From: Pegea sp. RAD2-039 | Taxonomy: Eukaryota; Chordata; Thaliacea; Salpida; Salpidae | Direction of reading: 5' to 3' | DNA length: 64,000 nt | NCBI GenBank assembly: GCA_034620365.1 | Contig: JAQGEQ010000232.1 | Location: 744,001-808,000 of the forward strand | Shown: positions 26,925-63,753 of the stretch, in pieces | Layout of the letters: every line of letters starts with the position of its first letter | Position numbering within the stretch: position 1 is the stretch's first letter | The notes under the pieces: model-generated | Databases searched by the model: none | What the model saw: the letters and a program-made list of their open reading frames with translations, nothing else | What the model was told of the DNA's origin: nothing | Position numbers and translations under genes: made by a program

Positions 26925-27742
26925 TTATAAATTGAGTGTATTTACAATCCAGACTTCATTTCTGCGATTATAAAATTTCCATGGCTCATCATAACCAACC
27001 ATATAAAAGAAATTAATAAGTAAGTTTTCTTTAGAAACACCATCTTCCAACAAATTAAAATAAAGTTCCTGAGCTTGATCCATATATTCGCTGAGTTTTG
27101 GATATCCTCCAAATCTCCTGGAAGTATATATTTCAACACTAGGTGGTAGAAAAGAGAAACAAATTCTTACTTGACGTAAACTTGAAACTGTAAGGTTTCA
27201 ATCTTAATGCCTTCATCTAAAGGTTTTGGAGGATTTGACTGAAATTCTGATGGCAAATAAAAACTCATTGTACTATTAACTGAGCAAAAAGCGCAGGGTC
27301 TACTGTATAGGCCCATTAGTACAGGTGTAGTCATTTCAATTTTGACACCTGGTAACAATAACATTAGCAACTTGTCGACGTAAATAACAACTGAAGCTAC
27401 CAGCAGAGTTTCGGCCACTAATATATCCGAAGAGTTGCATAAAACTTGAACCGCCATACGAATCATAAACGTTGCTTGTTGTAGTTTTTGTCACCCATTT
27501 TTGTCTTGAATAACTTCTCAATTCATAATTAGCACCCTGAAGTAACATAATTATCTATTTGTTCATCGATTATTTCAACTTACTTTAGAAATGACTTCAT
27601 ATGGAGCAGTTTGTAAAGAATTTGATGGAAGAGGAGATATACTTGGCTTGCTTGGAAAACCTTGACCTGACCAATTGAAACCAGAAAACTTCCCAGCGTT
27701 GCAAACTACGATGAGAGATAAAATAAAGATTAGAGATTTCAT
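26925..27742 (-). CDS. Secreted SOUL/heme-binding protein 1 (diverged paralogue)
   Basis: SOUL/HEBP-family protein. Related proteins bind heme or other tetrapyrroles; here a signal peptide (MKSLIFILSLIVVCNAG) predicts secretion or the endomembrane system. Exons on the minus strand: 27742-27584, 27536-27401, 27348-27171 and 27117-26925. Family landmarks: YEVISKGANYELRSYS near the start of the domain, FMQLFGYISGRN, KIEMTTPVLMG, RPCAFC with FYLPSEF, the FQVYVK strand and RFGGYPKLSEYMDQAQEL. Start at 27742 is chosen by comparison with the paralogues; an in-frame ATG at 27769 is possible. I placed the last acceptor at TTCCAG before GAGATTTGG, because it restores the family's VYVK-RFGG join; an earlier CTAG acceptor would insert seven residues. 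It is diverged from the three plus-strand copies but shares exon structure and promoter layout. Confidence 0.85.
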
Positions 27743-28610: not shown

Positions 28611-29351
28611 ATGATGAAGTCTTCAATCTTTATTCTCTCTCTAATCTCACTTTGCTGCGCTGGGAAGCTTGGATCTTTGTCAGATTCTGCAACTGGTGAT
28701 TATACAGTTCTTTCAAAGGTATGTTCAATTAGCAATCAACTAACAACTAGCTGACTAAGTGATTTCAGAACGACAACTATGAACTTAGAAGATATGCAAA
28801 CTTAACTTGGGTCTCAGTAGTTGCTAACACTCTTGTATATGATGAGTCCAACTTTGTTGATATTTTCAATTACATGAATGGTGAAAACTCTAAAGGTAAT
28901 TAACATAAGAAGATAGGATCAGAAATTGATGTTTTGTTGCTAGGAATAAAAGTTGAAGAAGCTGCACCCTTGATCACTCGCATAGCGATGAGTTCGTGTG
29001 CTTTCTGTCCTATTCCAATGATTAAAAGCTTTTATGTATCATCTGATGATCAAACAGATCTTCCTCTACCTCTGAGTGACAATGTTGTTATAGCTTTAAA
29101 ACCTGGCTTTGATGTTTACGTCAGGTCAGTCTTACGTTTTTTACTTCCATCAAGTGCTGATGACTTATATCTTTAACAGGAGTTTTGAAGGAAATGCGGA
29201 TCACGAAGAGTTTATGAGACAAGCCAATATTCTTTTAGAGGATTTGAAAGAAGATGGAATCGCTGAAAGTGATTTGTACCTTAACTACTTTTATATGGTT
29301 AAGTATGAAAATTCATTTAAAGAAGTTGGTATTGCAAAAAAACTTGCTTAA
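28611..29351 (+). CDS. Secreted SOUL/heme-binding protein 2
   Basis: SOUL-domain protein with signal peptide MMKSSIFILSLISLCCAG. Exons: 28611-28718, 28769-28895, 28944-29124 and 29180-29351, all GT-AG. Domain landmarks in order: VLSKNDNYELRRYANLTWVS, NFVDIFNYMNGEN, GIKVEEAAPLITRI, SSCAFCPIP, FYVSSDD, DVYVRSFEGNADHEEFMRQA, then NILLEDLKEDGIAESDLYL and YFYMVKYENSF. The family is known for heme/tetrapyrrole binding; I see no decisive ligand residue. Closest to SOUL genes 3 and 5, which share promoter, introns and 3' flank, so these three are recent duplicates. Ends in KKLA. A polyadenylation-like AATAAA lies near 29460. Confidence 0.9.
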
Positions 29352-36895: not shown

Positions 36896-37642
36896 ATGAT
36901 GAAGTCTTCAATCTTTATTCTCTCTCTGATCTCATTTTGCTGTGCTCAACAACTTGCATCTTTGTCAGATTCTGCAACTGGTGATTTTACAGTTCTTTCA
37001 AAGGTATGTTTAATTAGCAATCAACTAACAACTAGCTGACTAAGTGATTTCAGAACGACAACTATGAACATAGAAGATTTACAAACTTAACTTGGGTCAC
37101 AGAAATTGCTAACACTCTTGTATATGATGAGTCCAACTTTGTTGATATTTTTAATTACATCAATGGTGAAAACTCTGAAGGTAATTAGAATAAGAAAGTA
37201 GGATCAGAGATTGATATTTTGTTGCTAGGAATAAAAGTTGAAGGAGCTATACCCATGATTACTGGCTTATCGATGAGGCCGTGTGCTTTCTGCGCCTTTA
37301 ATAGCTCCAAGTTCTTTTTCGTATCATCTAAATATGAAGCAGATCTTCCTCTACCTCTGAGTGACAAAGTTCTTATATATCCGGTACCTGGCTTTGATGT
37401 TTACGTCAGGTCAGTCTTACGTTTTTTACCTTCATCAAGTGTTGATAACTTACATCTTTAACAGGAGTTTTGAAGGAAATCCGGGTCTAGAAGAGTTTAT
37501 GAGACAAGCCAATATTCTTTTCGAGGATTTGAAAGAAGATGGAATCACTGAAAGTGATTTGTATCTTCAATACTTTTACATGGTGGAGTATGAAAATTCA
37601 ATTAATGAAGTCATTATAGCTAAAAGTTTTACTTGGGTTTGA
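36896..37642 (+). CDS. Secreted SOUL/heme-binding protein 5
   Basis: Third plus-strand SOUL copy. Signal peptide MMKSSIFILSLISFCCA, exons 36896-37003, 37054-37180, 37229-37409 and 37465-37642, GT-AG introns. Landmarks: LSKNDNYEHRRFTNLTWV, GIKVEGAIPMITGLSM, RPCAFCAFNSSKFFFVSS, DVYVRSFEGNPGLEEFM and YFYMVEYENSINEV. It differs from genes 2 and 3 just after the signal peptide (QQLAS for GKLGS) and at the C-terminus (AKSFTWV for AKKLA), suggesting divergence at both ends. Its promoter block and 3' flank are still nearly the same as theirs. Confidence 0.9.
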
Positions 37643-43039: not shown

Positions 43040-43880
43040 CTACCTCATAATAACTAGAGCGTCCGGATGTTCTTTGCTTGAGCTGGGTCGCGCGCAAATA
43101 CTCAGTTTTAGTCTTAGCCGTCTTTAACTTTTCTATTATTTCTTTGACTTCCTAAATGTTTCTTGGGAGACCTTCTCCTAAGGATGATAGGATTGACTAA
43201 AATGTCCTTCCTCCCCATTTGAAGCATATTCTCGAACCAGCTCGGCATCTTTTAAAATCATGAGGTTTGCTACCTCCACATTTTAAACAAACTCCTTTCA
43301 TGGCCGCTGTTGTCGGTTCCCCTTGGTCCTTCTCCTTGAGTTCCATTAAATTCACTTCTTCTTCTGCAGCTTCAACCGATCTACTAGCACTGAATTATTG
43401 GTTGTTCCGCCGGGTATCCTCCAGTGTCAGTGCTTAGTGAAAGGTTTCCTCCATTGTTAAAGTCTTACGTTCTAACAATATCAACCTAATATCTGATGAG
43501 GCTAACCTATAAATAAATATCTGTCCATGTTATTTCTGTGTTCTGCTGCTTTGACACTTAAAACCTAAATCCTTGGACAAACGTACCAAAGTACACCGAA
43601 AGTCTTCTAGAGATTGATTTGGCTTCTGACTCTCAGTTCTTAGTAGATGACAAACAAAAATTTTATTTGGTTTTTGTATATACAGCCGTCTCAGCGTCGC
43701 TTCAGCTTTTATATAAGTCTGACAGCTCTCAAATTGCTGGTACACTTCTGGGGCTGCGCAATCCACAAGCACAGCCCATTTATCCTCATCAACTTTGCCA
43801 CTTATTATCTGTCTGACAAAATGCTAAAACCTTTCTTCCAGTGACGCTACTCCGAGGGACTATTTTGGTCTATAAGCGGC
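43040..43880 (-). mobile_element. Ty3/gypsy-like gag relic in unit A
   Basis: Minus strand: a capsid-like segment (43772-43530) reading YQQFESCQTYIKAEATLRRL and KPNQSLEDFRCTLVRLSKDL, typical of LTR-retrotransposon gag. Further on (near 43300-43200) a zinc-knuckle-like VCLKCGGSKPHDFKRCRAGS. Frames are interrupted by stops, and no protease or polymerase is seen. The element's edges are not clear. Confidence 0.65.
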
Positions 43881-44521
43881 TTTTCTGGTTTCAACAGTCC
43901 ATCCATTATTTTTAAGTTTGTTACAGTAAAAAACATATGTACTTACTCGAATAGAATCTTATTAAAATCTATACTAGGTATATCAAACTGAAACTATCTT
44001 AATTTTCGCTAAGCTTTAATTAAGTTAAGCCCCAACAACGCCAAAACAACTGGAAAAACTCGCCGAAGAAATAAATTTTAATAATTTGAATAAATTTTAA
44101 TGATAATGACTTTATATTGAGCTTTATTCAAATTATTCAGGCAACTAACAATACTATACACAAAACACCCTTTTACTGATTGGCAACGGTATATATGGGA
44201 GTAAGTTTTAACACATTTACGTCAGTGGCAAAATAATTTAATGGTATACCACTCTTGTGAGGTTCTTGCCGTTTTTTGGTTCAGTTTGATTTCTGACTAA
44301 AATGGCTCTTCTATTTTTGTTCGATGTTTCCTAATTTGTTGATATTGTAGTCTAACTGATAAAATAGATGAAGAAACTTAAAAAGATTCTATAACAAATG
44401 ATTCATTATTATTCTATTAAAAAGATTCTATATTAAACTTTTGATGCTTGTATAAATAAAAGTATTTTGATTCTAATAACTTTCAAAATATGAAATATAA
44501 AACTTAAAATTGTATTTTTTA

Positions 44522-44548
44522 GGAAACTGATTGCTTAGAAACCATCTG
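44522..44548 (+). pseudogene. Relic exon related to the repeated-exon gene (unit A)
   Basis: TTTTTTAG|GAAACTGATTGCTTAGAAAC... followed by a GTGAGT donor matches exon 11 of the gene at 56-64 kb (GAAACCGATTGCTCAGAAAC...), including about 30 nt of upstream intron (TAAAATTGTATTTTTTAG). It is shortened and its role, if any, is unknown; it could serve as a 5' UTR exon of the Bcl-2 gene. Confidence 0.7.
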
Positions 44549-44559
44549 GTGAGTTCAGT

Positions 44560-46183
44560 TTTGTTGATCTAATCTTCAATCATCTTTTTAATAATTGATT
44601 AAAATTTAGATTTTAAGAAAAAAAAATTATTTAAGATTATTGAAATTTTAAGGTTAATAACTAACTACTATGTTTGTAGTAGTTAATACAAAAATAAAAT
44701 TGCAAATTTAATCATAAGTTTAATTTCTGTGCTTTTAGATATAAACTTACTTGATTAAAACTTATATATTTATTTTCTAACCCTAGATACGCAAGAAATC
44801 ATAACACACGATTCTTCCTTCTCTTTCTCCGACCATTTTGTTGTTTGTCTTATAATTGAATTCTGCAAATCAATCCAATGGTGACATAATCTTCTTTAAC
44901 TTTTAGAGTTAATTTTCCGAAGTGATTAAAACTTATCTAGCTTTTTTTAACTTGGAGTATTTGTAGTTTTTATTTTTTTAGTCGATTAATTTTTTTTAAA
45001 TTAATTTTACATTTTGAAATGGCCTTTGATAGGTTTAATAATTAAAGTATTATGAATAATTATTTGAATATTTATAATTTTGATTTATTTGAACATACAA
45101 CTTTAAATTTGTTCTCGTATATAGCTTTTGTAGTTTATTTATTAAAAGTTTAATATTTCTTGTGTAATAGTTTGTAAACATATTTTTCTCGTGGTTATTT
45201 GCTATAAAAAGATGGTATCTTTTATTTTCTTTAAACTTTTTAAACTTAATATTTGTAATTATATTTATCAGAAAACTTTTTAAACATATTTAATTTCTCA
45301 ATTACAATTTTTTTTAATTGTTGCTTTAATTAATTTTTACTAATTAACCAAATTTTAATTATAATCAATTTTTTTATAAGATACTAAAATTATTTTTAAT
45401 TGATTATTAATTAATTTTTTTCCATTTATTTGGAAATTGTTACTCTAATTTTTTTTTTTTAATATTAAATACTTTTTATATCAATAATTTTTGTATAAGA
45501 TTTATTCTAATTATTTGTTTTTTATTGAAAGTTTTATATTTTGTCACTTTTTAGCTTCAGCTGTTGGTTGGTTTTGAAATAATCTTTTTGTAAAACTCTT
45601 TTTTTTCTTACAATTTGTTTGTTTTTTTTAATTTTGAATGAATAAAATTATTAATTGTTTGTTTTATTGCTATTATTCAGGTTTTTATACAATTTTAGAA
45701 GAAAAAGCATCTTCAAACAAAAACAAGAAACCCTAAGAACGTTTTAGTTTTTCTGCATCTCACTGTGTTTTGCTTTTTTTTAACACCATGTCACATGGTC
45801 GCTATCGGCCGAATTAAGCCATTATTACTGTTGTTAGATAATTAGCCATTATTGATGTTATATATAATAATGATATATTGATTATTATTGATTTTAAAGT
45901 CTTTTTTTAAATAAATTCATCTCATTTTAATCATGAATAATTTTACTTTCAATTTTGAAAGATTGTTTAATTTTGTTTAGATTCAATTATTTAAAGTTTG
46001 AATAATCAATTTAGATAATTTTTATGTATCCCAATAATATTGTAATATCTCCATTAAACTAAGAAATATAATTAAACAAATATTTAAATGAAGATGTTAA
46101 AATTTTTAAACAAATAACTTCTGGTTTTGTTTTAAAATTATTTTAAACATTGAATCACATTCTAACATATAACTTTGCTTACA
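44560..46183. other. AT-rich region upstream of Bcl-2 copy A
   Basis: Nearly identical in unit B. An intron-like stretch ending TTTTCTAACCCTAG near 44786 resembles the intron after the exon-11 type, so more diverged exons of the repeated-exon gene may be buried here. Confidence 0.3.
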
Positions 46184-46193
46184 GAATGACAAA

Positions 46194-46820
46194 ATGTTAT
46201 CTTCTAGAATATTTGTACAAGACTACATTCTTTACAAAATTAGTAGTCAATTGAAAGATCAAAATATCTCAAATTCTCTCTTTCTACCTGAAGATAACAC
46301 ACATGAAGAGTTGAAGTTATCTGTGAGAAGGTTAGTTGACGAATATGAGAGAAGATATACATCCAATTATACAGCCTTTTACGAATTCATTCAAACTATG
46401 ACCATCCAAGACCTACCAACCACCTTACATCAGTTTGCACTTGCTATTTTCAGGCTAAAACTCCTTTCGCCTAATGATAAGCGCTGTAGACGTTTGGTTT
46501 ATGATGACAGCGAAGTCCATTGGTGTCATGTGTTTGGTTTTCTGATGCTTGCTGGTTCTTTTGCCATCAATGCAATTGAAACAAAAGCCCCTGAACAAGT
46601 TGAACTGATTATCGATTTGGTTTCACAATTTCTTGATAATCAATTAGGTAGCTGGGTTGAAAGAAATGGAGGCTGGGAAAAAATGCGTGATTATTCAGCT
46701 TTAAACCAAAGTTTATTGAAATATGGGTGTCCTGTCAATGCCTCAGCTCAGTCTTTCTTACGTTATGGGTTAATAGCAGCATGTATTGGCTTATCAGCGA
46801 TGATTATTGGTAGAAAATAG
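46194..46820 (+). CDS. Anti-apoptotic Bcl-2 family protein, copy A
   Basis: 208-residue multidomain Bcl-2 protein, which would act at mitochondrial/ER membranes to control outer-membrane permeabilisation. Visible: an N-terminal BH4-like helix (VQDYILYKIS, residues 8-17), a BH3-like LSVRRLVDEYERRY (42-55), BH1 VHWCHVFGFLMLAGSFAINA (108-127, where family members have NWGR.....F.G), BH2 SWVERNGGWEKM (153-164) and a hydrophobic C-terminal anchor, LIAACIGLSAMIIG (193-206), ending RK. The NWGR motif is altered to VHWCHV, which may change partner binding. The coding part has no intron; a 3' splice site (TTGCTTACAG, ending 46184) lies 9 nt before the ATG, so there is a 5' UTR intron or a trans-splice site. 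AATAAA at 46828-46833. Differs from copy B at three residues. Confidence 0.9.
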   Translation: MLSSRIFVQDYILYKISSQLKDQNISNSLFLPEDNTHEELKLSVRRLVDEYERRYTSNYTAFYEFIQTMTIQDLPTTLHQFALAIFRLKLLSPNDKRCRRLVYDDSEVHWCHVFGFLMLAGSFAINAIETKAPEQVELIIDLVSQFLDNQLGSWVERNGGWEKMRDYSALNQSLLKYGCPVNASAQSFLRYGLIAACIGLSAMIIGRK

Positions 46821-49130: not shown

Positions 49131-49318
49131 TACAACCACTGAAGGAAATAGGATAGAAGCTGATTACTAGAGTAGTTTTAGAAAAGAGTTGAAATTGATG
49201 TTTAAAAAGTAATTTGTCGATAGTTTAGATTTTCTATTAGAAAGGTACATAACTTAAAGGTAACGAAGAATTAAAGACACACAAATTATTATAGATTATA
49301 TAGACCATATAGTGAAGT

Positions 49319-49680
49319 CTCATCATACTGTTTCTGTGTTCTGCTGCTGTGACACTTAAAACCTAAATCCTTGGACAAACGTACCAAAGTACACCGAAAG
49401 TCTTCTAGAAATTGATTTGGCTTCTGACTCTCAGTTCTTAGTAGATGACAAACAAAAATTTTATTTGGTTTTTGTATATACAGCCGTCCCAGCGTCGCTT
49501 CAGCTTTTATATAAGTCTGACAGCTCTCAAATTGCTGGTACACTTCTGGGGCTGCGCAATCCACAAGCACAGCCCATTTATCCTCACCAACTTTGCCACT
49601 TATTATCTGTCTGACAAAATGCTAAAACCTTTCTTCCAGTGACGCTACTCCGAGGGACTATTTTGGTCTATAAGCGGCTT
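49319..49680 (-). mobile_element. Ty3/gypsy-like gag relic in unit B
   Basis: Copy of the unit A capsid-like segment (RCTLVRLSKDLGFKCHS etc.), ending abruptly at about 49319 where unit B joins the LINE-flanking sequence. The zinc-knuckle part seen in unit A is absent. Confidence 0.65.
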
Positions 49681-50321
49681 TTCTGGTTTCAACAGTCCAT
49701 CCCTTATTTTTAAGTTTGTTACAGTAAAAAATATATGTACTTACTCGAATAGAATCTTATTAAAATCTATACTCGGTATATCAAACTGAAACTATCTTAA
49801 TTTTCGCTAAGCTTTAATTGAGTTAAGCCCCAACAACGCCAAAACAACTGGAAAAACTCGCCGAAGAAATAGATTTTAATAATTTGAATAAATTTTAATG
49901 ATAATGACTTTATATTGAGCTTTATTCAAATTATTCAGGCAACTAACAATACTATACACAAAACACCCTTTTACTGATTGGCAACGGTATATATGGGAGT
50001 AATTTTTATCACATTTACGTCAGCGGCAAAATAATTTAATGGTATACCACTCTTGTGAGGTTCTTGCCGTTTTTTGGTTCAGTTTGATTTCTGACTAAAA
50101 TGGCTCTTCTATTTTTGTTCGATGTTTCCTAATTTGTTGATATTGTAGTCTAACTGATAAAATAGATGAAGAAACTTAAAAAGATTCTATAACAAATGAT
50201 TCATTATTATTCTATTAAAAAGATTCTATATTAAACTTTTGATGCTTGTATAAATAAAAGTATTTTGATTCTAATAACTTTCAAAATATGAAATATAAAA
50301 CTTAAAATTGTATTTTTTAGG

Positions 50322-50348
50322 AAACTGATTGCTTAGAAACCATCTGGT
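50322..50348 (+). pseudogene. Relic exon related to the repeated-exon gene (unit B)
   Basis: Same sequence as the unit A relic (GAAACTGATTGCTTAGAAAC... with acceptor and donor), copied by the segmental duplication. Confidence 0.7.
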
Positions 50349-50359
50349 GAGTTCAGTTT

Positions 50360-51983
50360 TGTTGATCTAATTTTCAATCATCTTTTTAATAATTGATTAA
50401 AATTTAGATTTTAAGAAAAAAATATTATTTAAGATTATTGAAATTTTAAGGTTAATAACTAACTACTATGTTTGTAGTAGTTAATACAAAAATAAAATTG
50501 CAAATTTAATCATAAGTTTAATTTCTGTGCTTTTAGATATAAACTTACTTGATTAAAACTTATATATTTATTTTCTAACCCTAGATACGCAAGAAATCAT
50601 AACACACGATTCTTCCTTCTCTTTCTCCGACCATTTTGTTGTTTGTCTTATAATTGAATTCTGCAAATCAATCCAATGGTGACATAATCTTCTTTAACTT
50701 TTAGAGTTAATTTTCCGAAGTGATTAAAACTTATCTAGCTTTTTTTAACTTGGAGTATTTGTAGTTTTTATTTTTTTAGTCGATTAATTCTTTTTAAATT
50801 AATTTTACATTTTGAAGTGGCCTTTGAAAGGTTTAATAATTAAAGTATTATGAATAATTATTTGAATATTTATAATTTTGATTTATTTGAACATACAACT
50901 TTAAATTTTTTCTCGTATATAGCTTTTGTAGTTTATTTATTAAAAGTTTAATATTTCTTGTGTAATAGTTTGTAAACATATTTTTCTCGTGGTTATTTAC
51001 TATAAAAAGATGGTATCTTTTATTTTCTTTAAACTTTTTAAACTTAATATTTGTAATTATATTTATCAGAAAACTTTTTAAACATATTTAATTTCTCAAT
51101 TACAATTTTTTTTTAATTGTTGCTTTAATTAATTTTTACTAATTAACCAAATTTTAATTATAATCAATTTTTTATAAGATACTAAAATTATTTTTATTTG
51201 ATTATTAATTAATTTTTTTCCATTTATTTGGAAATTGTTACTCTAAATTTTTTTTTTTTAATATTAAATACTTTTTATATCAATAATTTTTGTATAAAAT
51301 TTATTCTAATTATTTGTTTTTTATTGAAAGTTTTATATTTTGTCACTTTTTAGCTTCAGCTGTTGGTTGGTTTTGAAATAATCTTTTTGTAAAACTCTTT
51401 TTTTTTTTACAATTTGTTTGTTTTTTTAATTTTGAATGAATAAAATTATTAATTGTTTGCTTTATTGCTATTATTCAGGTTTTTATACAATTTTAGAAGA
51501 AAAAGCATCTTCAAACAAAAACAAGAAACCCTAAGAACGTTTTAGTTTTTCTGCATCTCACTGTGTTTTGCTTTTTTTTTAACACCATGTCACATGGTCG
51601 CTATCGGCCGAATTAAGCCATTATTACTGTTGTTAGATAATTAGCCATTATTGATGTTATATATAATAATGTTATATTGATAATTATTGATTTTGAAGTC
51701 TTTTTTTTAAATAAATTCATCTCATTTTAATCATGAATAGTTTTACTTCAGTTTTGAAAGATTGTTTAATTTTGTTTTTATTCAATTATTTAAAGTTTGA
51801 ATAATCAATTTAGATAAATTTTTATGTATCCCAATAATATTGTAATATCTCAATTAAACTAAGAAATATAATTAAACAAATATTTAAATGAAGATGTTAA
51901 AATTTTTAAACAAATAACTTCTGGTTTTGTTTTAAAATTATTTTAAACATTGAATCACATTCTAACATATAACTTTGCTTACA
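50360..51983. other. AT-rich region upstream of Bcl-2 copy B
   Basis: Near-identical to 44560-46183. No additional gene seen. Confidence 0.35.
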
Positions 51984-51993
51984 GAATGACAAA

Positions 51994-52620
51994 ATGTTAT
52001 CTTCTAGAATATTTGTACAAGACTACATTCTTTACAAAATTAGTAGTCAATTGAAAGATCAAAATATCTCAAATTCTCTCTTTCTACCTGAAGATAACAC
52101 ACATGAAGAGTTGAAGTTATCTGTGAGAAGGTTAGTTGACGAATATGAGAGAAGATATACATCCAATTATACAGCCTTTTACGAATTCATTCAAACTATG
52201 ACCATCCAAGACCTACCAACCACCTTACATCAGTTTGCACTTGCTATTTTCAGGCTTAAACTCCTTTTGCCTAATGATAAGCGCTGTAAACGTTTGGTTT
52301 ATGATGACAGCGAAGTCCATTGGTGTCATGTGTTTGGTTTTCTGATGCTTGCTGGTTCTTTTGCCATCAATGCAATTGAAACAAAAGCCCCTGAACAAGT
52401 TGAACTTATTATCGATTTGGTTTCACAATTTCTTGATAATCAGTTAGGTAGCTGGGTTGAAAGAAATGGAGGCTGGGAAAAAATACGTGATTATTCAGCT
52501 TTAAACCAAAGTTTATTGAAATATGGGTGTCCTGTCAATGCCTCAGCTCAGTCTTTCTTACGTTATGGGTTAATAGCAGCATGTATTGGCTTATCAGCGA
52601 TGATTATTGGTAGAAAATAG
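51994..52620 (+). CDS. Anti-apoptotic Bcl-2 family protein, copy B
   Basis: 208-residue paralogue of copy A with the same BH4-like, BH3-like, BH1 and BH2 segments and C-terminal anchor. The three differences are Ser92 to Leu (LLLPND), Arg99 to Lys (KRCKRL) and Met164 to Ile (WEKIRD, within BH2). The frame is fully open, and the 3' splice site 9 nt before the ATG and the AATAAA at 52628-52633 are kept, so both copies are probably active. The duplicated upstream region suggests the same expression. Confidence 0.9.
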   Translation: MLSSRIFVQDYILYKISSQLKDQNISNSLFLPEDNTHEELKLSVRRLVDEYERRYTSNYTAFYEFIQTMTIQDLPTTLHQFALAIFRLKLLLPNDKRCKRLVYDDSEVHWCHVFGFLMLAGSFAINAIETKAPEQVELIIDLVSQFLDNQLGSWVERNGGWEKIRDYSALNQSLLKYGCPVNASAQSFLRYGLIAACIGLSAMIIGRK

Positions 52621-52633
52621 TACTTTCAATAAA

Positions 52634-54596
52634 CGTTTTTCGTTATTATATAATAAAAATTCGTTTAAATTTGTGTTTATAAACAACTCAGTTTAATCTT
52701 TAAGTTTTCTAGATTCCTCATAACCACGTTGCTTCATAAACAGAATTATTAGATTGTTTAGTTTAAGATTGGACTCTTTCACTTTCATATCTTTATAAAC
52801 TTTTAGATAATTTTTATTTTTATTCATCTTTACTTCCTCTAAATCACTTTTGGCAAACATTTAACATTTGTGAAGAAGTGTTAGTCACTTTTATAGACTT
52901 CAAAAACTTTAGATTAAGTTTAAATATTTTAATCTTATCATTATCTTCATTTATAAATCAAATTATCATAATTCAGTAGTATATTCAAATAAATTATTCA
53001 AGGATTTACTTTATAGTAGAATTACACTTAGAAATTTGGGCAAAATATCTTTTTAATGTCTCTAACAAGGTGACCACTAATCTTATAAGAAAAGGACACT
53101 TTTTCAACGTCCTTACTATTTTGAAATTTAATAAGACTTAAAATATTAGATATCAAAATTTCCAACTAATATCAACTTTGATAAAAATACTTTACAAAAT
53201 AAAACTAAAATACTTGTATTTACCGGAAACATAAACGGATATAAAAGATAATTAATTATATTCCAAAAACCATTTAGAGAATTATTAACCTTTATAAACT
53301 TTTCTCAAACCAAAGAAATATTTTGACCATTTTATATAAAGCAAGATAGAAAAATATATTATTATAGGCACAAAGCGAAGTAAACTTTATCTTATTGACT
53401 ATATTTTATTGCAAATATAACTTTTAAAAGATTTTCTACCAGTTTGTGTGTCGACGACATGTTAAGAACAACTGTTAATCACAACCGTTGCCTTGGAAGG
53501 TTTTCACTGGCTTTTTAAGACTTATTTCAAAATAACGTAAATGTTAGGAAGTTATCCAGTTAATCTATTAAAGTTGTTGGGCAATTATCACATTTAAATG
53601 ATTTTCTAACTTTAATATTTATCTTAGATACAAGTTTATAAACCTTTAAAATATAAAATTAGTAAAAGCTTATCTTTATATTTTAAAACCGAAAACAAAC
53701 AATAAATTTGTTAAGGACGAGCAAACTTAAATTATAAAACTAATTTTTGCCTTTCAGCAATTATTGTATCAACAAATTTCAGCTATTTACTTTATTATTT
53801 GAACAAAAATCTCTACACTTCACTGAGATAATTTCAGATTATATGTATTCAACGCGTGGCTACTTAACAGATCTTATAGCAAACAAAAACTAATGGTTAT
53901 GAGCAAGAAGATAATTGAAAGGTAATAATAATTAAAAACTCATTTAGAAAGAACACTGCAAATGCAGATAAAATTTATATGCAGATAAAATATAAATCAT
54001 GAATCAAAAATTTGATATTACAAAATAGAAGAAGAAAATAAAAAAACTGATTATTCAAAGTTCAAATTTAATTAAAAGATAATGAATAGAGAATTTTAAG
54101 TATATAATATTCATTTATATATTATATTTATAATTCTACGATATTGTAATATAGAAACAAACAAATTTATTTAATAGTTTTTTCTAAGCTGAGTAACATT
54201 AAATATAGAAAAACTTGTCTTTACAAACCAACTTTGCTCCTAGCAACACGCAACTAAACACCTACTTTGATAGAATGGTGGACGCTTATTTATAAAACGT
54301 AGTCTTAGATGTTTAATAATATAAACTATCATAATTTAACCAAACACTTGCTCTGTGTATTTACTTACTAGTGTTTATGATTTTGAAATGGAAAAGTTAT
54401 CAGCAGCCGTTTTTAGACGAGCTTTAATCTTATACCCACATAGCAAATGTTGATGAACTTCATTTTTCCAATACATCTCATGTATTATTGATATATAGTA
54501 TCATAGCAAAGAGCCTTAGAGGTAAAAGACTCACCGTTTGCGAACTGCTATTAACTGATGACGCAGAAAATGTTGCACATCCACAAAAGATTCATT
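52634..54596. other. AT-rich 3' flank of Bcl-2 copy B
   Basis: Copy of 46834-48796. No gene recognised. Confidence 0.4.
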
Positions 54597-54995
54597 TAAT
54601 TATTTATTACAATAAATGTGAAGGAGGATGCCTGAAATGAGCACCTCTCGCTAACACACATTCTCACAAATAGCATCTATTTGGTCAAAAATATAGAAAG
54701 CAAAAGATGTAACACATGGCATTTCGATAGCACTCAAAGCATATAACAGTGAATAATTACATGGAATGTTAATAATATAAAAAAGGAAAAAATCGCATTT
54801 TAGAAATGACAATGTTGGCAATATTATAACGGTTCAACTTTTGCTTGAACAACGCGAGTGATTCTGAGATGACAATGTCTGATGGCAGCTGGTTCCAAGT
54901 ACTAATTGTGCGGTATGAGAAATAATTCACTATGATTAACGTACCAGCTGATATGGGCTTATTAAGATGTATAGATGTTGGACCGATTTTCATGA
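54597..54995 (-). mobile_element. LINE 3' end at the right edge of unit B
   Basis: Minus-oriented, with tail at 54597-54615. Its 74-codon frame ends like many LINE ORF2 proteins: NYFSYRTISTWNQLPSDIV, then SLALFKQKLNRY. Beyond the shared 350 nt it resembles the copy at 35.6 kb rather than the other duplicated ones. Confidence 0.82.
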
Positions 54996-55490
54996 GTCTG
55001 TATAAACTTTAGATTGAAAATCAGTTTAAAAACACAAAAGTCCTTGGCTAAGCTGTTAACGTTCCACAATCAACATCGATGGCTGTGACATTAAGGTTGT
55101 AGATAGCTTTGTCTATCTCGGCTCAAAATGTTACATCATCAGTATCAATAGAAACAGAGATCAACAGGCGCACCGGTAAAACATTTGATGCATTTGTACG
55201 GGTAAACAGTTCTGAGATGATCCTAATCAGTTTATCAAATCAATAGCCATCGTCTACAGAGACGATGTCTGCAGTAAACTATTGTGCCAGAAAAACATAG
55301 AGTTTCTTGAAGGTTAATGAAGATAAGCTTCCATTTCGTTGACTTACGTATATTAATGTGGCAGCAAAAGATCTCAAACAAAAAAGACCTACCGTGCAAT
55401 GGTCTAACAACAGCATGCTAAGCAGGTAAACACTTGGCTGGCTCGGACACGTCCGTCGGGTGGATGCCGGCATATTAAAAGATAAAAGAA
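54996..55490 (+). mobile_element. Degraded LINE reverse-transcriptase 3' fragment
   Basis: Plus-strand pieces: VVDSFVYLGSK near 55097, then ETEINRRTGKTFDAFVR near 55153 in another frame, and LGWLGHVRRVDAG near 55433. These match, in order, conserved C-terminal reverse-transcriptase blocks (VDSF.YLGS, EI..RI..A..AF, LRWLGHV.RM..GR). Frameshifts and stops show it is dead. Confidence 0.7.
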
Positions 55491-56113
55491 ATATTCAATT
55501 AATCAAGGTGACTAATTCTTTTAATGTTAATAACGAGCTAACTTGAATTATTTTGACAACGATATTAGCATCTATGACGTAATAACCAATATTTCATAAC
55601 TCACTTGTAAAAAAGTTTTTCTATTAATTGTCTACTTTATTGAGGTTTGTACATCGCTCTTTTAAAACTTAATTAAATTAAAATAAATGAGTAAATCTTT
55701 CAAAGTTCTTAATTATATTTGACAATTATGAAATATTTTTGATTAAATTATTAATTTAGAAAGTTACTGAATAACTTAGTATCGATTTATACTTTATATC
55801 AATTTTAAAGTAGAAATTATGCAATTATTCTATTTAATTTTTAATGTTTAGTTTAGATATTTTGAGATCGCAAACAAAGTTGTTAGTAATCTCAAATTGT
55901 TTCTTTGAATACCTTCAAATGTTATTAAGCAGTTTTAGTTTGCTCTTATTTTAAAATATGCGAAAATACTAGGATATAATTAATAGCTTTTATCGCTAAA
56001 ACTAACTAAGTTAGTTTTAAAACTTAATAATTAAAAAGTAGTTGTCAAAAGCAATTTTATGTCTTGCTATTTAAAAATATCTTTTCACCAGATAGAAATA
56101 TTTATTTTTCGAG
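55491..56113. other. AT-rich region upstream of the repeated-exon gene
   Basis: No clear TATA or other promoter motif. May hold non-coding 5' exons. Confidence 0.3.
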
Positions 56114-59100
56114 ATGGATAAGCGACTAGACATACTTAGTAAGTATTTTTCAATCTATTACTTTCTTTTTTAACCTAGTAATAAATCATAAATAACATTA
56201 ACACTTTGTAGTTCATATTTAAATGTTATTATTTTGATATTAGATCATACTATGGAAGTTCACTTATATGAAGTGAATCACCTACATTTAAACGATATCT
56301 ATTTTCAACTGGTAAGTAAATAAAATTGTTAACTTTATTAATATCACTTTCAAATAACTATTCTAAAATTGATAACAAGCATGCTTTGTTTAAATTAACT
56401 AATTTCTTATGTTTCAGCCAAAATTAGTATTGTTTGAAATAACAATGTTTGGTAAGTTTACTTTTGTTTTAAATGATTAGATTTTAAATTAAATGCCTTA
56501 ATGCAACTGATAAACAGTTTTTAAAACTACATTTTTATTTAAAGGTAATTTTGAACAAACGAAATTTAAAGGTTAGAGAATTAATTAATTGATTGTAACC
56601 TCATCTATTAACATATAAAAAATTTTAGGTACAATTCAACAAAATGTTTTTAACCTGCAGCAGTGGAAATGTTTGTTGGTAAATTGATTTATTTCAATTA
56701 TTATGTTAAAAACACCTAATAATTTATCCAATTTTTACTTTTTCAAGTTTATTTAATTATATTTGATTCAATAATCCTATGAATAAATTCTTTTTTAATT
56801 TTAAGATTCTGTTAATAAGTAAAAATAACTTATGATTTTATTTTTAGTTGGAATACATGAAGCACCTAAGTAAGTGTAGCAGACAAAATGTTTGTTCTAA
56901 AAATAATAATTTTAATCTGATTTTTCTGAAACTTGTTACTTTATGGTCATAGTTTTGTAAATATTTTCAATTAAAAAGTAGAACTTTAAGTTTTAATACA
57001 AAATTAAAAGATGGTGCTCTCTTAAGGCACCTTCCTTCACATTTATTGTAATAAATAAATAAATAAATGAAAATATTTTCAGCTGTTAACAAAGTTGTTG
57101 TTGGAGATATTGTTGAAAATGCTATAGACTATACAGTGAGTTAAATAAACATTTTCTTTACTGATAACACTTGCTTGTCTTTTGTAGTAGTTTTAAGACT
57201 GATTTGTATATAGATTTTTAGTATTTTATCAGAAAGTATTTGATTCATCCTTATTCATACTTAATGCAAATTAATAAATGATAACAGTTGACTAAATAAG
57301 TGATTACAGTTTTTGTTTAACTCTATTTCTTGTAGGAAACCTCATCAATTGTTGAAGTTATTGAAGAAGAAAACGAAATGGTAAATTTTAACCGTTGATA
57401 TAAAATATGTACATTATAAAACTATTTGTTTATTTTTTTAACTATATAAAAGATTAATTATTCATCTTTGCTAAATCAATAATGGTCATATTGAAATAAA
57501 ATCAGCTTAAAATCAAAAATTTGTTGAGCTTTCAATACTTTTACAACAAAATAATTTAAGTAGAAGTAAAATATGTAAAACTGGGAAATATTTTTCAGTT
57601 GACTGATTTGGAAGATGGTGATGATGATTTGAAACCTTCCAGCGTGAGTTTCTGTTTCTTCTAGATTCAGTTTGTCCGTGATTCTAATTTAAAAGTTTTT
57701 ATCCGTTTGTTAAATTGATTGTAATAATGTTTGTGAAACAAATTTAACTTCTTTTGCTGCTTCACTTGCATTTGTATAATTTGAGTATCATTCGCTTTTA
57801 TTCTATAAAATACTAATTATTCGAGCTTTTCATAGACTAAACAATTGTAACAATTATACAGAGACACAAAATATAAAACTCAAATACACTCAAATAAAAT
57901 ATATCACAGTTATACAAAAAATCAGTTTTCTTTCTAGCTATGATGTGTTAACGAAAAACATATCTTAAGTTTAGATTACTTTAAATTAAGGTTCAATGTC
58001 AGTATTTTATTTAAGGTGGTTTTCCGATTCCAGCGTTAGTTTAAATTGTTTAAACTATTAGTTTTAAAGTTATGTTTAAGCTACTAAAAAAATTTGAAAC
58101 TGAAGGTTGTAGTTTAAAGTCAACAAGATTGTAATCAAATTAATTATTTTACAAAACAAAATTGTAATTTATTATTTTGATAAATGATAAAACTTGAAAA
58201 TACTTTAATTAAACCACTAACTTATTCCAAAAAAGTAGTAAAAAATATTTGAGCAGTTTTAAAATGGTTTTCAATACATATTTTCTTTAGTTATTAGAGT
58301 TACTCAAGGAATGTGACAGTGACAGCTCTTCAATCTCCTCATGGGTTAGTTTCTGTGATTAATTTATCATCACCCATTTTGTTTATTAAATCTTATATAT
58401 ACTTTTTGTTTCTAAGAACTTTTTTCAAGTTATGATAGCTGAATTAAATACTTGGTTTTGTATAAAAATATCAAAATTTTTTTGCTACTTTCAAAAGATA
58501 AAACATAAAATTGTATTTTTTAGGAAACCGATTGCTCAGAAACCAACAATAATTTGGTGAACCATGTTTTGGTAAATATTAATTTGATCCTAAACTTAAT
58601 TTAATTTGTTTTTAATGTAAATTTGTCTTATTAAAACTTACTGAAAATATTTATTTATGATTTTAGATTGAAAACGATGAAATGAAAAGCAAAGTCACAG
58701 CGATAATTTCAGAACCTAATACAGTTAGTGAAAAATTACCATTTCTATTTGTTTCTTAGATCTAAAAACTAAAATATTGTAAATTTTAATGCTAAAAATG
58801 TTATTAAAATAATTATTACAGATCTAAATACAAGTTACTGATTTAATTTTTCTGTAATTTTATTGATAATATAGAAGATAAACTTATAGAAACTGATTTG
58901 ATTGCTTTCAGACACAGAGCAAACCATTTTAGCTTCTTTTCAAGAACTCACTAGATTGTCATTATCATACTACAGATTATTTAATATTTCATTCATTAAT
59001 AGTTTAGAAATAAAAAATGTATGATTTAACTTCAATTCATTTTTAATTTAATTAAAATAATTTTCATTTTTATTAACATTTGATATAAAATAGAATATAA

Positions 59101-62100
59101 TTTAAAATTTAATTGCTTGTATCTCTGTTGCTATTTTTTTTGATATTTGTACTATATTAAAATAAAAACATATTAATTTTTATTTCATTTTTTTCAGGAA
59201 CAAAGCATAGGTGATAATAGCAATATTCAAAATGTTGAAAGCAAACCAGTTAGTTTTGATTTAATGTTGATATTACAATGGTTTTACTTCACAAGTTTTT
59301 TTTGATTTAAATATAAATTCTCTGTAATATTACTGAACAAAATTAAAGTAATAAATTTGTTATAACTACTTTAGAAATGTTTTATAAATTACGTTTTCAA
59401 AACAAAATAAATATTATTTTTGCTCTCAACTTTATTTAAATTTCAATCATTTTTTTCAGGATCAAAATATCCCATATGAAGAACCTAAGAATATAAATGT
59501 TGAAAGCAAACCGGTAAGTTTGGTTTCGTTTATCAGTTACAAATTTGTAACTTTTTAGAAATTATTGATAACAAGTTAATGTTTATATAAAAATGAGTCT
59601 TCTCAATTATAAATTTAAGTTGTTCAATGCAGGAAACAGCTTTCGAGATTTTCAAGAGAAATTTGTTGAGAATAAGAGCTGTAAGTAAAAACTTATACGT
59701 GATTTTGAATATAACGTAAAAAATTTAAAGCAATTATTTTCTATCTCTCCATAAACTTTTAAAATCTCTGAATTTCATTTTAATGAATTTAAATTCTTTT
59801 TTTATAGTCATGAATTACGTTAAATAAAGTAAATTTAACTATTTTACATAGACAAAATTAAATCTTATAACTTGAAAAATGATAAACTTGAAAATACCTT
59901 ATTCAAACCATTAACTTATTACAGAAAAGTATTAAAGTAAATTTGAACAATTTTCATATAGTTTTTAACAAATTCTTTCTTTAGGAACAAAAAGCTAAAA
60001 AGGAAAGTCAAAGTGACAGGAGTTCAATCTCCTCATTGGTTAGTTTCTGTGATTAATTTATCATCAGTCGTTTTGTTTATAAATTCTGATATATAGTTTT
60101 TGTTAGTCACAACTTTGGTTCAAGTTATATAAATTAGATTAAATAATTGTTGTTTTCATGAATTGATCAAATATTTTTTTCTTTTTGCTAATTTATAAGA
60201 AAAATAACTCTAAAAAAATATGTGTAAGTTAACACTAATACCTGATGTTAAATAGAACATAAAAATGTAAAGCAATTAATTTCTGACTCTCAATAAAATT
60301 TATTACGTCTGAATTTTGTTTTAATGAATTTAAAATCATTTTTTTAGTCACGAATTAAGTTAAATAAAATCAAATTAACTACTTTACAAAAACAAAATTA
60401 AATCTTATAATTTGAAAAATGATAAAACATAAAAATACTTTATTGAAACAACTAACTTATTACAGTAAACTAGTAAAATAAATTTGAATAATTTTCATAT
60501 AGTTTTTAACAAATATTTTCTTTAGGAATCAAATGCTAGCAAGAAAAGTCAAAGTGACATCTGGTCAATCTTCTCATTGGTTAGTTTCTGTGATTAATTT
60601 ATCATCAGTCATTTTGCTTATTAATTCTTAAAAAGGGTTTTTTTTAGTTATAACTATATTTCAGGTTAAATAAATTTAACTAGATAATAGTTGTTTCCAT
60701 GAAAACATCAAATAAGTTGTTTTTGTTACTTTCAAATATTAAAAGATAAACTTGTCTTTTTTAGAAAGCCGATAGCGAAGAAACCAGCAATAATTTGGTG
60801 AATCCAGTTTTGGTAAGTACTGATTTGATTCTAAACCTAATTTCCTTTATCTTAAATATAAATTTGCCTTATTAAAACTTACTGAAAATATTTATTTATG
60901 ATTTTAGATTGAAAACGATAAAATGAAAAGCAAAGTCACTGCGATAATTTCAGAACCGGATACAGTTAGTGAAAATTGATTATTTCTTTTTGTTCTTTAG
61001 ACCAAAACCAAAATTATTGTAAATTTTAATAATAAAATTTATTTAGAGTTAGCTATTAAGGATCTAAATACAAGTTACTGATGTAATTTTTCATTAAATT
61101 TATTTATAATATAGAAGATAATCTTATAGAAACTGGTTTAATAGCTTTCAGACAAAGAGTAAAACCATTTTAGTTTCGTTTCAAAAACTTACTAGATTGT
61201 CATTATCATACAATAGAATATTAAATTTTTCATTCAATTAAAAGTTTAGAAATAATTTATTGATTTTAAACTTTTTGATTTAGCTTCAGTTTGTTGTTAA
61301 ATTAATCAAACTAATTTTCATTTTCCTTTAAAGTTTTGACATAAAAGAAAACATAACGTAATAATTATTTGTTTTTATCTCTGTTGCAGATTTATTTGCT
61401 GTTTTTACTATATTAAAATTATAACTGATTAATTATTATTTTATTTTTTAAGAAACATGGTATAGATGATAATAACAATATTCAAAATGTTGAAAGCAAA
61501 CCAGTTAGTTGTGATTTAGTGTTGATATTATAATATTTTTACTTCACAAGTTTTTTTTATTTAAATATTAATTTTCTGTAATATTTTTATAAAAAAAATT
61601 AAACTAATAAAATTATTGTCACTACATTAGACAACTTTTATAAATTACGACTTCAACATAAAATCAATCTTATTTTTTCTCTCAATTTCATTTAAATGTT
61701 AATCATTTTTTTCAGGATCAAAATATCCCAGATGAAGAACCTAAGAATATAAATGTTGAAAGCAAACCGGTAAGTTTGGTTATTCAGCTTTTCTTTGTCA
61801 GTTACATAAATGACTCTTTATAATTATTATTGACAAGTTATTGTTTGTATCAAAATTTGATGCTTCTCAGGATAAATTGTAAATTTAAGTTGTTCAATGC
61901 AAGAAAACGTATTTTGAGCTTATAAAAAGATAACTCGAAAAAGTTATCTGTAAATTAACACTAAAATATTATGTTAAATATAACGTACAAAATTTACAGT
62001 AATTATTTTCTACCTCTCTATAAACGATTAATTTCTCTGATTTTAGTTTTAATGGAGTTTAAATCATTCTTTTAGTCATGAATTAAGTTAAATAAAATCA

Positions 62101-63753
62101 AATTAACTAGCTTACAAAAACAAAATTAAATTGTATAACATTAAAAAGAAAAAAAAATAGAAAACACCTTTTTAAAACTACGAACGATTTTCATAATAAT
62201 AGTAGAATAAATTTGAACAGTTTTCTTACAGTTTTTAACAAATATTTTCCTTAGAAATCAAATGCTATCAAGAGATGTGACAGTGACAAGTGTTCAATCT
62301 CCTCATTGGTTAGTTTTTGTTATTATTTCATCATCAGCCATTTTGTTTATTAATTATTGTATATAGTTTTTGTTAGTCATAATTTTACTTCAAGTTATAT
62401 AAATTTGATTAAATAATAGTTATCTTCAGGAGAAAAATAAACAATTTTTTAACATTTACAACTTTCAAAAGATAAAAGATAACATTTTTTTGTAGAAAAC
62501 CGATTGCGGAGAAACCAGCAATAATTTGGTGAATCCAGTTTTGGTAAATAATAATTTGATCTTAAACCTAATTTATTTTGTTTTAAATTTAATTTTGCCT
62601 TCTTAAAACTTACTTCGAATATTTGTTTTGATTTTAGATTGAAAACGATGAAATAAAAAGCAAAGTCACTTCGATAATTTCAGAACCTGATACAGTTAGT
62701 GAAAATGATTGTTTCTATTTGTTGTTCTATTTAAAAATATATTTTCCTGTTTTTTTAAACAGGTTTAATATAAAAAAATTATTAATGAAAATTTAGTTAT
62801 TTGTACTATATTAAATCAAAGTTGATTAATTAGTTCTTTATTTTTTCAGAAACAAAGCATAGTTGATAATAGCAATATTCAAAATTTTGAAAGCAAACCA
62901 GTTAGTTGTGATTTAATGTTGATATTATAATGGTTTTATTTGAAAAGTTTTTTTCTGATTTAAATAATAATTCTGTTCAATATTTCTGTGAAAATATTTC
63001 ACTAATAAGATTATTGTCACTACCTTAGACAAATTTTTTAAACTACAACTTAAATATAGAATTAATATTGTATTTGCACTTAACTTCATTTGAGCCTTAA
63101 TTATTTTATTCAGGATCAAAATATCCCAGATAAAGAACCTAAGAATATAAATGTCCAAAACAAACCGGTAAGTTTGATTTCGTTTATCAGTTACATATAT
63201 CATGGTTTATAATTATTATTAATAAGTTGGTGTTTATAGTGAAAAGGATTATCTTGAATTAAATTGTAAAATTAAGTTGTTCAATGCAGAAAAACAAGGT
63301 TGAAACTAGGAAGAAAGATGCCATTAAAAAATTATCTGTAAGTTAAGACGAATACCTGATGCTAACTATAAATTAAATAATATTGAAGCAATTAATTTCT
63401 GTTTAACAAAATTTTAATTTCTCTGAATTTTATTTTATTAAAATAAGAATCTTTAATTCTATAAAATGAATTAAGTAAAATATTAAATTTAAAAACAATT
63501 TGCAGAAGAAGAAGAGATTTAGAAATCTTTTGATTCGAGTTTTTACTTGTGGATGCGTAAGAAAATGTAAATTGAAAGTTTATCTTTTATTTGATTTAAT
63601 TATTTTATTTCTTATTAATTTGAAAAATTTGCTTTGTGATATAATTTAGCAATATAAAAAACATTCTATAATCTATTTGCTTTTATCATTTAATTTTAAT
63701 TGAAAAAAAAACTTTTGTTTATTTATTTTATTTTTCATTTTCAGAAGCTGTAG
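56114..63753 (+). CDS. Unrecognised gene of ~28 tiny exons with tandemly repeated exon cassettes
   Basis: Predicted 456-residue protein of no known family. N-terminal exons: 56114-56138, 56244-56311, 56418-56451, 56545-56571, 56629-56678, 56848-56869, 57083-57135, 57336-57380 and 57599-57643. Then six exon types, all phase 0: A (54 nt, SDxxSISS), B (48, ETSNNLVNPVL), C (57, IENDEMKSKVTAIISEP), D (51, NSNIQNVESKP), E (54, DQNIPDEEPKNINVE) and F (48, basic). Cassette 1 ABCDEF: 58291-58344, 58524-58571, 58667-58723, 59198-59248, 59460-59513, 59633-59680. Extra A: 59985-60038. Cassette 2 ABCDE: 60526-60579, 60765-60812, 60908-60964, 61453-61503, 61716-61769. Cassette 3 ABCDEF: 62255-62308, 62496-62543, 62638-62694, 62850-62900, 63114-63167, 63290-63337. 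Last exons: 63506-63556 (KKKRFRNLLIRVFTCGC) and 63745-63753 (KL, stop). No signal peptide; the repeat region is acidic, Ser/Asn-rich and probably disordered. The start ATG is provisional. Confidence 0.8.
57011..57068 (+). mobile_element. LINE 3' end fragment in an intron
   Basis: GTGCTCTCTTAAGGCACCTT...TTATTGTAATAAATAAATAAA is the last 58 nt of the same LINE family, inserted between exons 6 and 7 of the repeated-exon gene. Confidence 0.72.
61904..61949 (+). pseudogene. Dead F-type exon in cassette 2
   Basis: At the place where cassettes 1 and 3 have exon F, the acceptor TGCAG has become TGCAAG and the exon (AAAACGTATTTTGAGCTTAT...) has an in-frame TAA ten codons in. A GTAAAT donor remains. 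Skipping it keeps the frame. Confidence 0.75.

What the first reader, a model, noticed from the sequence alone, without database searches (positions are those of the whole stretch)
56114..63753. Repeated micro-exon gene: six-exon cassette copied about three times, all exons phase 0
Apart from its ends, the gene consists of 45-57-nt exons whose lengths are all multiples of three and which all start and end in phase 0. Six exon types (A-F) recur in the same order in three cassettes, with homologous introns. Any exon can be skipped, or any cassette added or lost, without shifting the frame, so the locus can produce or evolve many protein variants. The design recalls the micro-exon genes of parasitic flatworms, but without a visible signal peptide and with longer exons. 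I recognise no family.
Basis: partly seen in the sequence, partly recalled or inferred. Interest (0 to 1): 0.92.

Follow-up and report, generated by a model that had tools for sequence, protein, structure and literature searches.

The report
Tunicate gene of interchangeable small exons
A sea-squirt-type animal carries some two dozen copies of an unknown gene whose protein tail is built from short exons that can be added or lost without breaking the reading frame, a design known from parasitic worms and aphids for which I found no description in tunicates.

Summary
The gene has 29 predicted exons (56114-63753). Exons 8 to G (21 exons, 45-57 nt) are all phase 0-0 and their 361 codons carry no stop; none of the seven N-terminal exons is 0-0. 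The genome (105.7 Mb) holds at least 23 copies with an open N-terminal part and 27 open 3' parts, on 11 contigs, 12 of the 3' parts in tail-to-tail inverted pairs. Copies differ by whole in-frame modules; exon indels are multiples of three, intron indels mostly not. Two JGI proteins (369 and 350 aa, from 1.2-kb contigs, so probably spliced RNA of a relative) are tiled by the same modules in another order and differ by one 19-aa module. The host is most likely a tunicate. Nothing significant was found in Pfam or the PDB, and no other relative in a word-based search of 5.77 billion proteins. It is not a schistosome micro-exon gene: no signal peptide, longer exons, another phylum. Best reading: a fast-evolving, lineage-specific intracellular protein with a conserved head, a disordered tail of adjustable length and a basic C-terminus. 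Variation between copies is shown; alternative splicing is not.

The parts
54147..54443 (+). upstream block shared with other copies (about 76-89% identical)
   Evidence: query 1498-1794
55472..56050 (+). upstream/promoter region, 88-96% identical in 21 other copies; more conserved between clades than the introns (0.867-0.891 against 0.804-0.855)
56114..56138 (+). exon 1 from the ATG (phase 0 to 1)
56244..56311 (+). exon 2
56418..56451 (+). exon 3
56545..56571 (+). exon 4
56629..56678 (+). exon 5
56848..56869 (+). exon 6
57083..57135 (+). exon 7; ends the 93-aa conserved head (53 or 56 nt in copies)
57336..57380 (+). exon 8, 45 nt, first phase 0-0 exon (45 or 57 nt in copies)
57599..57643 (+). 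exon 9, 45 nt (42, 45 or 48 in copies)
58291..58344 (+). exon A1, 54 nt
58524..58571 (+). exon B1, 48 nt
58667..58723 (+). exon C1, 57 nt
59198..59248 (+). exon D1, 51 nt
59460..59513 (+). exon E1, 54 nt
59633..59680 (+). exon F1, 48 nt
59985..60038 (+). exon A2, 54 nt (lone A; 541 nt from A3)
60526..60579 (+). exon A3, 54 nt
60765..60812 (+). exon B3, 48 nt
60908..60964 (+). exon C3, 57 nt
61453..61503 (+). exon D3, 51 nt
61716..61769 (+). exon E3, 54 nt
61904..61949 (+). decayed F3 position (in-frame stop, 46 nt), presumably skipped
   Evidence: read by eye; register from D7
62255..62308 (+). exon A4, 54 nt
62496..62543 (+). exon B4, 48 nt
62638..62694 (+). exon C4, 57 nt
62850..62900 (+). 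exon D4, 51 nt
63114..63167 (+). exon E4, 54 nt
63290..63337 (+). exon F4, 48 nt
63506..63556 (+). exon G, 51 nt: basic C-terminus
63745..63753 (+). exon H: KL stop (one of two possible 3' ends)

Best explanation
A lineage-specific, multi-copy protein-coding gene family of a tunicate. Shown from sequence: a gene of 29 predicted exons; a conserved head of about 93 aa (exons 1-7); an acidic, polar tail of repeated 15-19-aa modules, one module per phase 0-0 exon; a basic C-terminus (exon G); module number and order differ between copies and species without breaking the frame. Inferred: because neighbouring cassettes have homologous introns, unequal recombination and gene conversion add or delete whole exons, so the tail length drifts or is selected at the DNA level while head and C-terminus stay fixed. 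Inferred: the protein is intracellular (no signal peptide, no transmembrane stretch in the spliced form) and works as a tether or scaffold, with the disordered tail as a linker of adjustable length with possible phosphorylation sites, and the basic C-terminus with its cysteines binding a membrane or a nucleic acid. Alternative splicing of modules is possible but not shown. The confidence given is for the family and its DNA-level module gain and loss; for the tether role it is about 0.2.
For: Exons 1-9 were found with open frames in 23 of 23 copies that have the 5' part; splice dinucleotides are intact except the C87 exon 3 acceptor and the C171-115k exon 8 donor, GC counted as a donor. In 27 of 27 main 3' parts the exons found are open with intact splice dinucleotides (the stop in H was judged apart, 24 of 26). 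Exon indels were 3, 3, 12 nt (window-C26) and 3, 12 (C90a-C26), while 59 of 67 and 54 of 61 intron indels were not multiples of three. Exons are more alike than introns: 0.969 against 0.949 (window-C90a), 0.895 against 0.847 (window-C26). dN/dS of exons 1-7 is 0.27-0.76. Module sets differ: three cassettes (window, both C90 copies, C26), two plus a lone A (C272-125k), X Y B C B D E F (C171-115k, C171-40k, C31), X Y B D E F (C171-86k, C171-71k). P0001's tail is tiled by the modules with a DP score of 198 against a maximum of -71 in 200 residue shuffles. 5' and 3' trees conflict (window copy with C90- at 5', support 0.98; with C272-119k and C253 at 3', support 1.00), as recombination between copies would give.
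Against: No RNA from this species. Exons of the copies were found with templates from this family and a score bonus for AG/GT, so exons that have decayed far would be missed rather than counted as broken. The tether role rests on composition alone. The structure prediction failed (mean pLDDT 28.1), so no fold is known for the head. Cassettes largely keep position-specific identity across copies, so exchange between positions is slow. The arms of the C90 inverted pair are 95.1% alike, no more than either is to the window copy (94.8-95.1%), so arm-to-arm conversion is not evident there, although C70-112k groups with C70+107k and the two C159 arms group together with C165+4k. Exon E has more replacement than silent change (dN/dS 1.7-1.9; 8-9 against 1 change), which may be weak constraint as well as selection. 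C102 and C247 hold broken 3' pieces (3 loci looked at).
Confidence: 0.72

Rival explanations
1. Splicing-driven diversity: one locus makes many isoforms by skipping phase 0-0 exons, as proposed for schistosome micro-exon genes; DNA-level cassette number is secondary.
For: All 11 tail exon types can be skipped in frame while 0 of 7 head exons are 0-0. P0002 lacks exactly one 19-aa C module that P0001 has. C171-115k has lost the exon 8 donor yet its other exons are intact, and the F3 position of the window gene is decayed.
Against: P0001 and P0002 also differ by three substitutions next to the missing module, so they may be alleles or paralogues. Phase symmetry would equally follow from exon duplication, which only survives for symmetric exons.
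Confidence: 0.25
2. DAZ-like germline amplicon: a gene with an internal exon repeat amplified in inverted pairs because copy number itself matters in the germ line.
For: Six tail-to-tail inverted pairs on C90, C272, C70 (two), C159 and C165; C90 arms 11.6 kb, spacer about 3.2 kb; variable internal repeat number.
Against: No expression data; no sex chromosome known here. The C26 and C31 copies are head-to-head, the C171 copies mostly tandem, and the window, C253 and C87 copies have no partner in the lists.
Confidence: 0.12
3. Passive by-product of amplified, satellite-flanked DNA: decaying copies that merely look like genes.
For: 113-bp satellite arrays lie next to several pairs; dN/dS reaches 0.76; C102 and C247 hold decayed 3' pieces.
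Against: No stop in any of 23 heads and only multiples of three among exon indels; relatives in another species keep the modules.
Confidence: 0.04
4. A diverged member of a known family with fixed structure (PC4/SUB1 head, or a collagen-type repeat gene).
For: By eye the head resembles the PC4 pattern; 45/54-nt phase-0 exons recall fibrillar collagen (recalled).
Against: hhalign of head against PC4: probability 1.7%; no PC4 match in Pfam scans; no Gly-X-Y repeat in the translation.
Confidence: 0.03

Closest known systems
Micro-exon genes (MEGs) of schistosomes (PMC4350168, PMC4671649; passages seen)
   Same: Most of the coding region in small symmetric exons; high dN/dS; some products with unstructured regions; lineage-restricted
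   Different: MEG microexons are under 36 bp between two long exons; all MEG products are said to have a signal peptide; apparently platyhelminths only. Here 42-57 nt, no signal peptide, a tunicate
bicycle genes of aphids (PMC9168663; passages seen)
   Same: Many small internal exons of one phase, many copies, fast evolution, little sequence similarity elsewhere
   Different: bicycle internal exons are nearly all phase 2, and many proteins have signal sequences and CYC motifs; no repeated cassettes are described in the passages seen
DAZ genes of primate Y chromosomes (PMC2322974; passages seen)
   Same: Conserved head exons plus a variable number of a repeated exon (24-aa DAZ repeat, 8-24 copies); copies in inverted pairs
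   Different: DAZ has an RNA-binding head and one repeat type, and its pairs are head-to-head; here six or more module types, an unknown head, and mostly tail-to-tail pairs
Fibrillar collagen exons (recalled)
   Same: 45/54-nt phase-0 exons in long series
   Different: No Gly-X-Y; modules are of several types in cassettes

Membership tests
Schistosome micro-exon genes | Microexons under 36 bp make most of the coding region | tested here: not met
   Tail exons 45-57 nt in the window; only exons 3, 4, 6 and the coding parts of 1 and H are under 36 nt
Schistosome micro-exon genes | Mostly symmetric exons (length divisible by 3) | tested here: met
   21 of 21 tail exons; of the head exons only exon 4
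Schistosome micro-exon genes | Signal peptide | tested here: not met
   No hydrophobic core: maximum KD over 10 residues 0.53 in the first 35; hydropathy only, no SignalP at hand
Schistosome micro-exon genes | Two long flanking exons | tested here: inconclusive
   Coding parts of first and last exons are 25 and 9 nt; UTR lengths unknown
Schistosome micro-exon genes | Alternative splicing yields variants | not testable with these tools
   No RNA from this species; P0001/P0002 suggestive only
PC4/SUB1 (PF02229) | Profile match to the PC4 domain | tested here: not met
   hhalign probability 1.7%; the one PF02229 match in the genome is on C18
Aphid bicycle genes | Internal exons nearly all in phase 2 | tested here: not met
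   Tail exons are phase 0; the CYC motif was not searched
DAZ-like ampliconic genes | RNA recognition motif in the head | tested here: not met
   No RRM in Pfam scans of the head; only DUF1577 at E 0.042 in one of 6 rows
DAZ-like ampliconic genes | Inverted pairs and variable internal exon repeat | tested here: met
Fibrillar collagens | Gly-X-Y repeat | tested here: not met
   translations, by eye

The most novel reading that the evidence does not exclude
A chordate has independently evolved a combinatorial micro-exon gene family: more than 20 loci, each an arrangement of interchangeable phase-0 exons, which together with exon skipping yield a large, individual-specific repertoire of intracellular proteins that differ in tail length and composition, used in a conflict role such as recognition of intruders or germ-line competition.
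Probability: 0.15. Interest if true: 0.88.

Novelty: new variant of a known kind. Interest (0 to 1): 0.6.

Why it matters
Genes with many exons of similar size and the same phase are said to be rare in most genomes (PMC9168663, passage seen), and the studied ones (schistosome MEGs, aphid bicycle genes) are fast-evolving secreted effectors. Here the same design appears in an apparently non-secreted family in a tunicate, with more than 20 copies whose module sets differ. That makes it a natural test of whether symmetric exon modules evolve for splicing diversity or simply because only symmetric exons survive duplication, and of whether such genes need a parasite-host arms race at all.

Tried and rejected
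Rejected: PC4-like head (looked alike by eye; profile comparison 1.7%). PDB profile hits of the head to retroviral proteases are chance (best E 0.32). AlphaFold2 on P0001+P0002 gave pLDDT 28.1, so no fold search was run. Exon fragments as alignment rows misaligned and were not used. A third protein search with a six-row profile found no new relative. A coding extension past exon G: the read-through frame is shared by many copies, but over its first 60 nt the third codon positions are the most conserved (0.86, 0.915, 0.967), which does not look like coding constraint. Considered: that the copies are only haplotype duplicates; rejected for copies that share a contig (3' parts: C171 7, C70 4, C272 3; C159 three copies), not excluded for some copies on different contigs. 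Selection on exon A between cassettes (81.5 replacement against 5.5 silent differences over six non-independent pairs; by codon position 32, 33, 22) is a hint only.

Literature searches for a prior description: (one search was for DAZ); none listed this family, but the library holds open-licence papers only.
Full report
What was checked. The window gene was rebuilt exon by exon from the raw sequence. It has 29 predicted exons from the ATG at 56114 to a stop at 63753 and encodes 456 aa. Exons 1-7 (22-68 nt, mixed phases) give a 93-aa head; exons 8, 9, the A-F cassettes and G give the tail and C-terminus. The 21 exons from 8 to G are 45-57 nt, all start and end in phase 0 and have AG/GT borders. 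They hold 361 codons and no stop, while the other two frames of the same exons hold 21 and 50 stops. The gene's introns are 19.7% GC and 9.7% of their triplets are stops. The cassette series is A1-F1, a lone A2, A3-E3, A4-F4; introns and exons repeat together (copies of 300, 230, 182 and 162 nt at 71-83% identity). The F position after E3 is decayed (by eye).

An internal control. If symmetry were a habit of the whole gene, the head should show it. It does not: 0 of 7 head exons are 0-0 (exon 4 is 1-1), 11 of 11 tail exon types are (8, 9, A-G here; X and Y in the C171 copies), 1/C(18,7)=3e-5. The figure is post hoc and takes the types as independent.

The family. A search of the window's own genome (105,744,746 bases, 387 contigs) with the 5' part gave 24 matches, 23 of them over nearly the whole query and one partial. 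The 3' part gave 59 matches, of which 27 (L033-L059) are main copies; the rest are pieces of these and weaker matches on C102 and C247 (40 of 87 candidates were scored, so counts are lower bounds). The main copies lie on C35, C90, C272, C70, C159, C253, C87, C165, C171, C31 and C26. In 23 of 23 the exons 1-9 were found with open frames; splice dinucleotides are lost at two sites only (C87 exon 3 acceptor, C171-115k exon 8 donor; GC accepted as a donor). In 27 of 27 3' parts the exons found are open with intact splice dinucleotides. The KL/KM stop of exon H is in place in 24 of 26 examined, two run on, and one locus was not matched by the pattern. The three C102/C247 loci looked at have a broken G exon or border. 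Exons were found with templates from the family at 64-68% identity or more with a bonus for AG/GT, so strongly decayed exons would be missed.

Module gain and loss. Contiguous DNA gave six full genes: window, C90+ and C90- (29 exons each, same set), C26 (three A-E cassettes, one F), C272-125k (two cassettes and a lone A), C171-115k (X Y B C B D E F G; its exon 8 lacks a donor and was left out). Merged overlapping loci add C171-86k (X Y B D E F G, no gaps) and, with short N runs, C171-71k, C171-40k and C31; C171-57k, C171+140k and C70+20k have gaps and are not counted. All are open. Exon length changes are 53/56, 45/57 and 42/45/48 nt, always by threes. Between aligned genes the exon indels were 3, 3, 12 (window-C26) and 3, 12 (C90a-C26), while 59 of 67 and 54 of 61 intron indels were not multiples of three.

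Selection. Exons 1-7 have dN/dS 0.27-0.76 within and between three clades; exons A-G 0.34-0.72 among the window, C90+ and C90- copies, with exon E alone at 1.7-1.9. Exons are more alike than introns. Between cassettes of the window gene the pooled ratio is 1.81, and for A 4.07, but these are few, non-independent comparisons. The 0.56 kb upstream is more conserved between clades than the introns, as expected of a shared promoter. BC segments group partly by cassette position: the middle cassette of the window groups with the middle one of C26 (support 0.955), so the cassette series is older than that split; other groupings are weak. The 5' and 3' trees disagree on the partners of the window copy, which points to recombination among copies.

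Relatives elsewhere. In the set of 5.77 billion proteins only two passed E 0.001, both with one query and with a six-row profile: P0001 (369 aa, contig of 1230 nt) and P0002 (350 aa, 1173 nt), both JGI, unnamed (about 8000 candidates sharing most words are scored per search). Whole-length frames in 1.2-kb contigs, for a gene that here spreads over 7.6 kb, mean spliced RNA most probably; an intronless retrocopy is not excluded, and the contigs themselves were not seen. They are not from this genome: the best exon identity to it is 63%. P0001 beyond residue 94 is tiled as B, 16 aa without a match (I take it as a diverged C), B C D E A B C D A B D E, 14 aa without a match (taken as a diverged F), G; score 198 against at most -71 in 200 residue shuffles. 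P0002 lacks one C unit (19 aa) and has three substitutions near it. This supports the module borders from another species.

The organism. The pelota gene in the window matches best (96%) an unnamed ENA protein; the best named matches are tunicates: Phallusia 70%, Clavelina 67%, Ciona 67%, Styela 64%; named non-tunicates in the list reach about 61%. In a tree the window protein sits with two unnamed ENA proteins on a long branch, not nested among the named tunicates. A GH6 match (27.5 bits, cut-off 27; none in 14 control genomes) fits the tunicate cellulose synthase fusion, which I recall and did not test further. I take it as a fast-evolving tunicate, at about 0.85.

What the protein may do. 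Nothing significant in Pfam or the PDB (best E 0.042). No signal peptide or transmembrane stretch in the spliced form by hydropathy; tail net charge -23, S+T+N 30%, 70% disorder-promoting residues; C-terminal 19 residues +7. If intron G-H is kept, the frame runs on into a hydrophobic stretch (KD over 19 residues 2.0) that varies between copies and shows no coding-like pattern of conservation; P0001 ends at VRK. The intracellular tether model is inference from composition.

Genome setting. Six tail-to-tail pairs lie on C90, C272, C70 (two), C159 and C165. The C90 pair has arms of 11.6 kb (95.1%) and a spacer of about 3.2 kb with a tRNA gene. A 113-bp satellite array follows one arm and arrays also lie beside pairs on C159, C70, C272 and C165. 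Spacings of about 13.6 kb between D-E matches recur on C90, C272, C70 and C165, 14.2 kb on C159 and 11.6 kb for the other C70 pair.

Comparison. The working principle is that of schistosome micro-exon genes and aphid bicycle genes (many small exons, symmetric or of one phase, fast evolution; passages of PMC4350168, PMC4671649, PMC9168663) and, in genome layout, of DAZ (passages of PMC2322974). It is a member of none of them: exon size, signal peptide, phase, head domain or phylum differ (membership table). [quoted passage not shown]

Noticed in passing
L071:2556-3890 (C35:810556-811890, minus), just beyond the window: Intronless 444-aa ORF of a large family (100 matches from 95 scored of 165 candidates, with longer relatives of about 780 aa on C266, C91, C95, C67, C254); a broken relative lies in the C90 spacer. 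Only a weak match, DUF6331 (E 0.0033, under the cut-off).
   Followed up: partly
43530-46820 and 49289-52620: Direct duplication offset by 5.8 kb (98% over 2257 nt) carrying a 215-aa Bcl-2-family ORF (Pfam E 2.7e-12) and a gag-like ORF on the other strand (label by eye, no Pfam match).
   Followed up: partly
2061-10476 and around: Huntingtin-like gene (HEAT matches) in a stretch with large minisatellites: 34 copies of 22 bp at 10789-11535, 15-bp arrays at 5426-6008 and 12687-13081.
   Followed up: no
26925-27490, 28904-29176, 37189-37461: Several SOUL haem-binding-like ORFs in both orientations (one over the Pfam cut-off; one under it; the others by eye).
   Followed up: no
54590-54971: Dispersed repeat of about 380 bp upstream of the gene; the first look listed 3322 candidate places for the 3.4-kb query that contains it.
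   Followed up: no
L072:1-2535 (C90:29001-31535): 113-bp satellite, 22.4 units here, found on many contigs and beside several inverted pairs of this family.
   Followed up: partly
60200-60223: Possible 24-nt phase-0 exon (AG before, GTAAGT after, reads KNNSKKIC) at the F2 position; relic or true microexon undecided (by eye).
   Followed up: no
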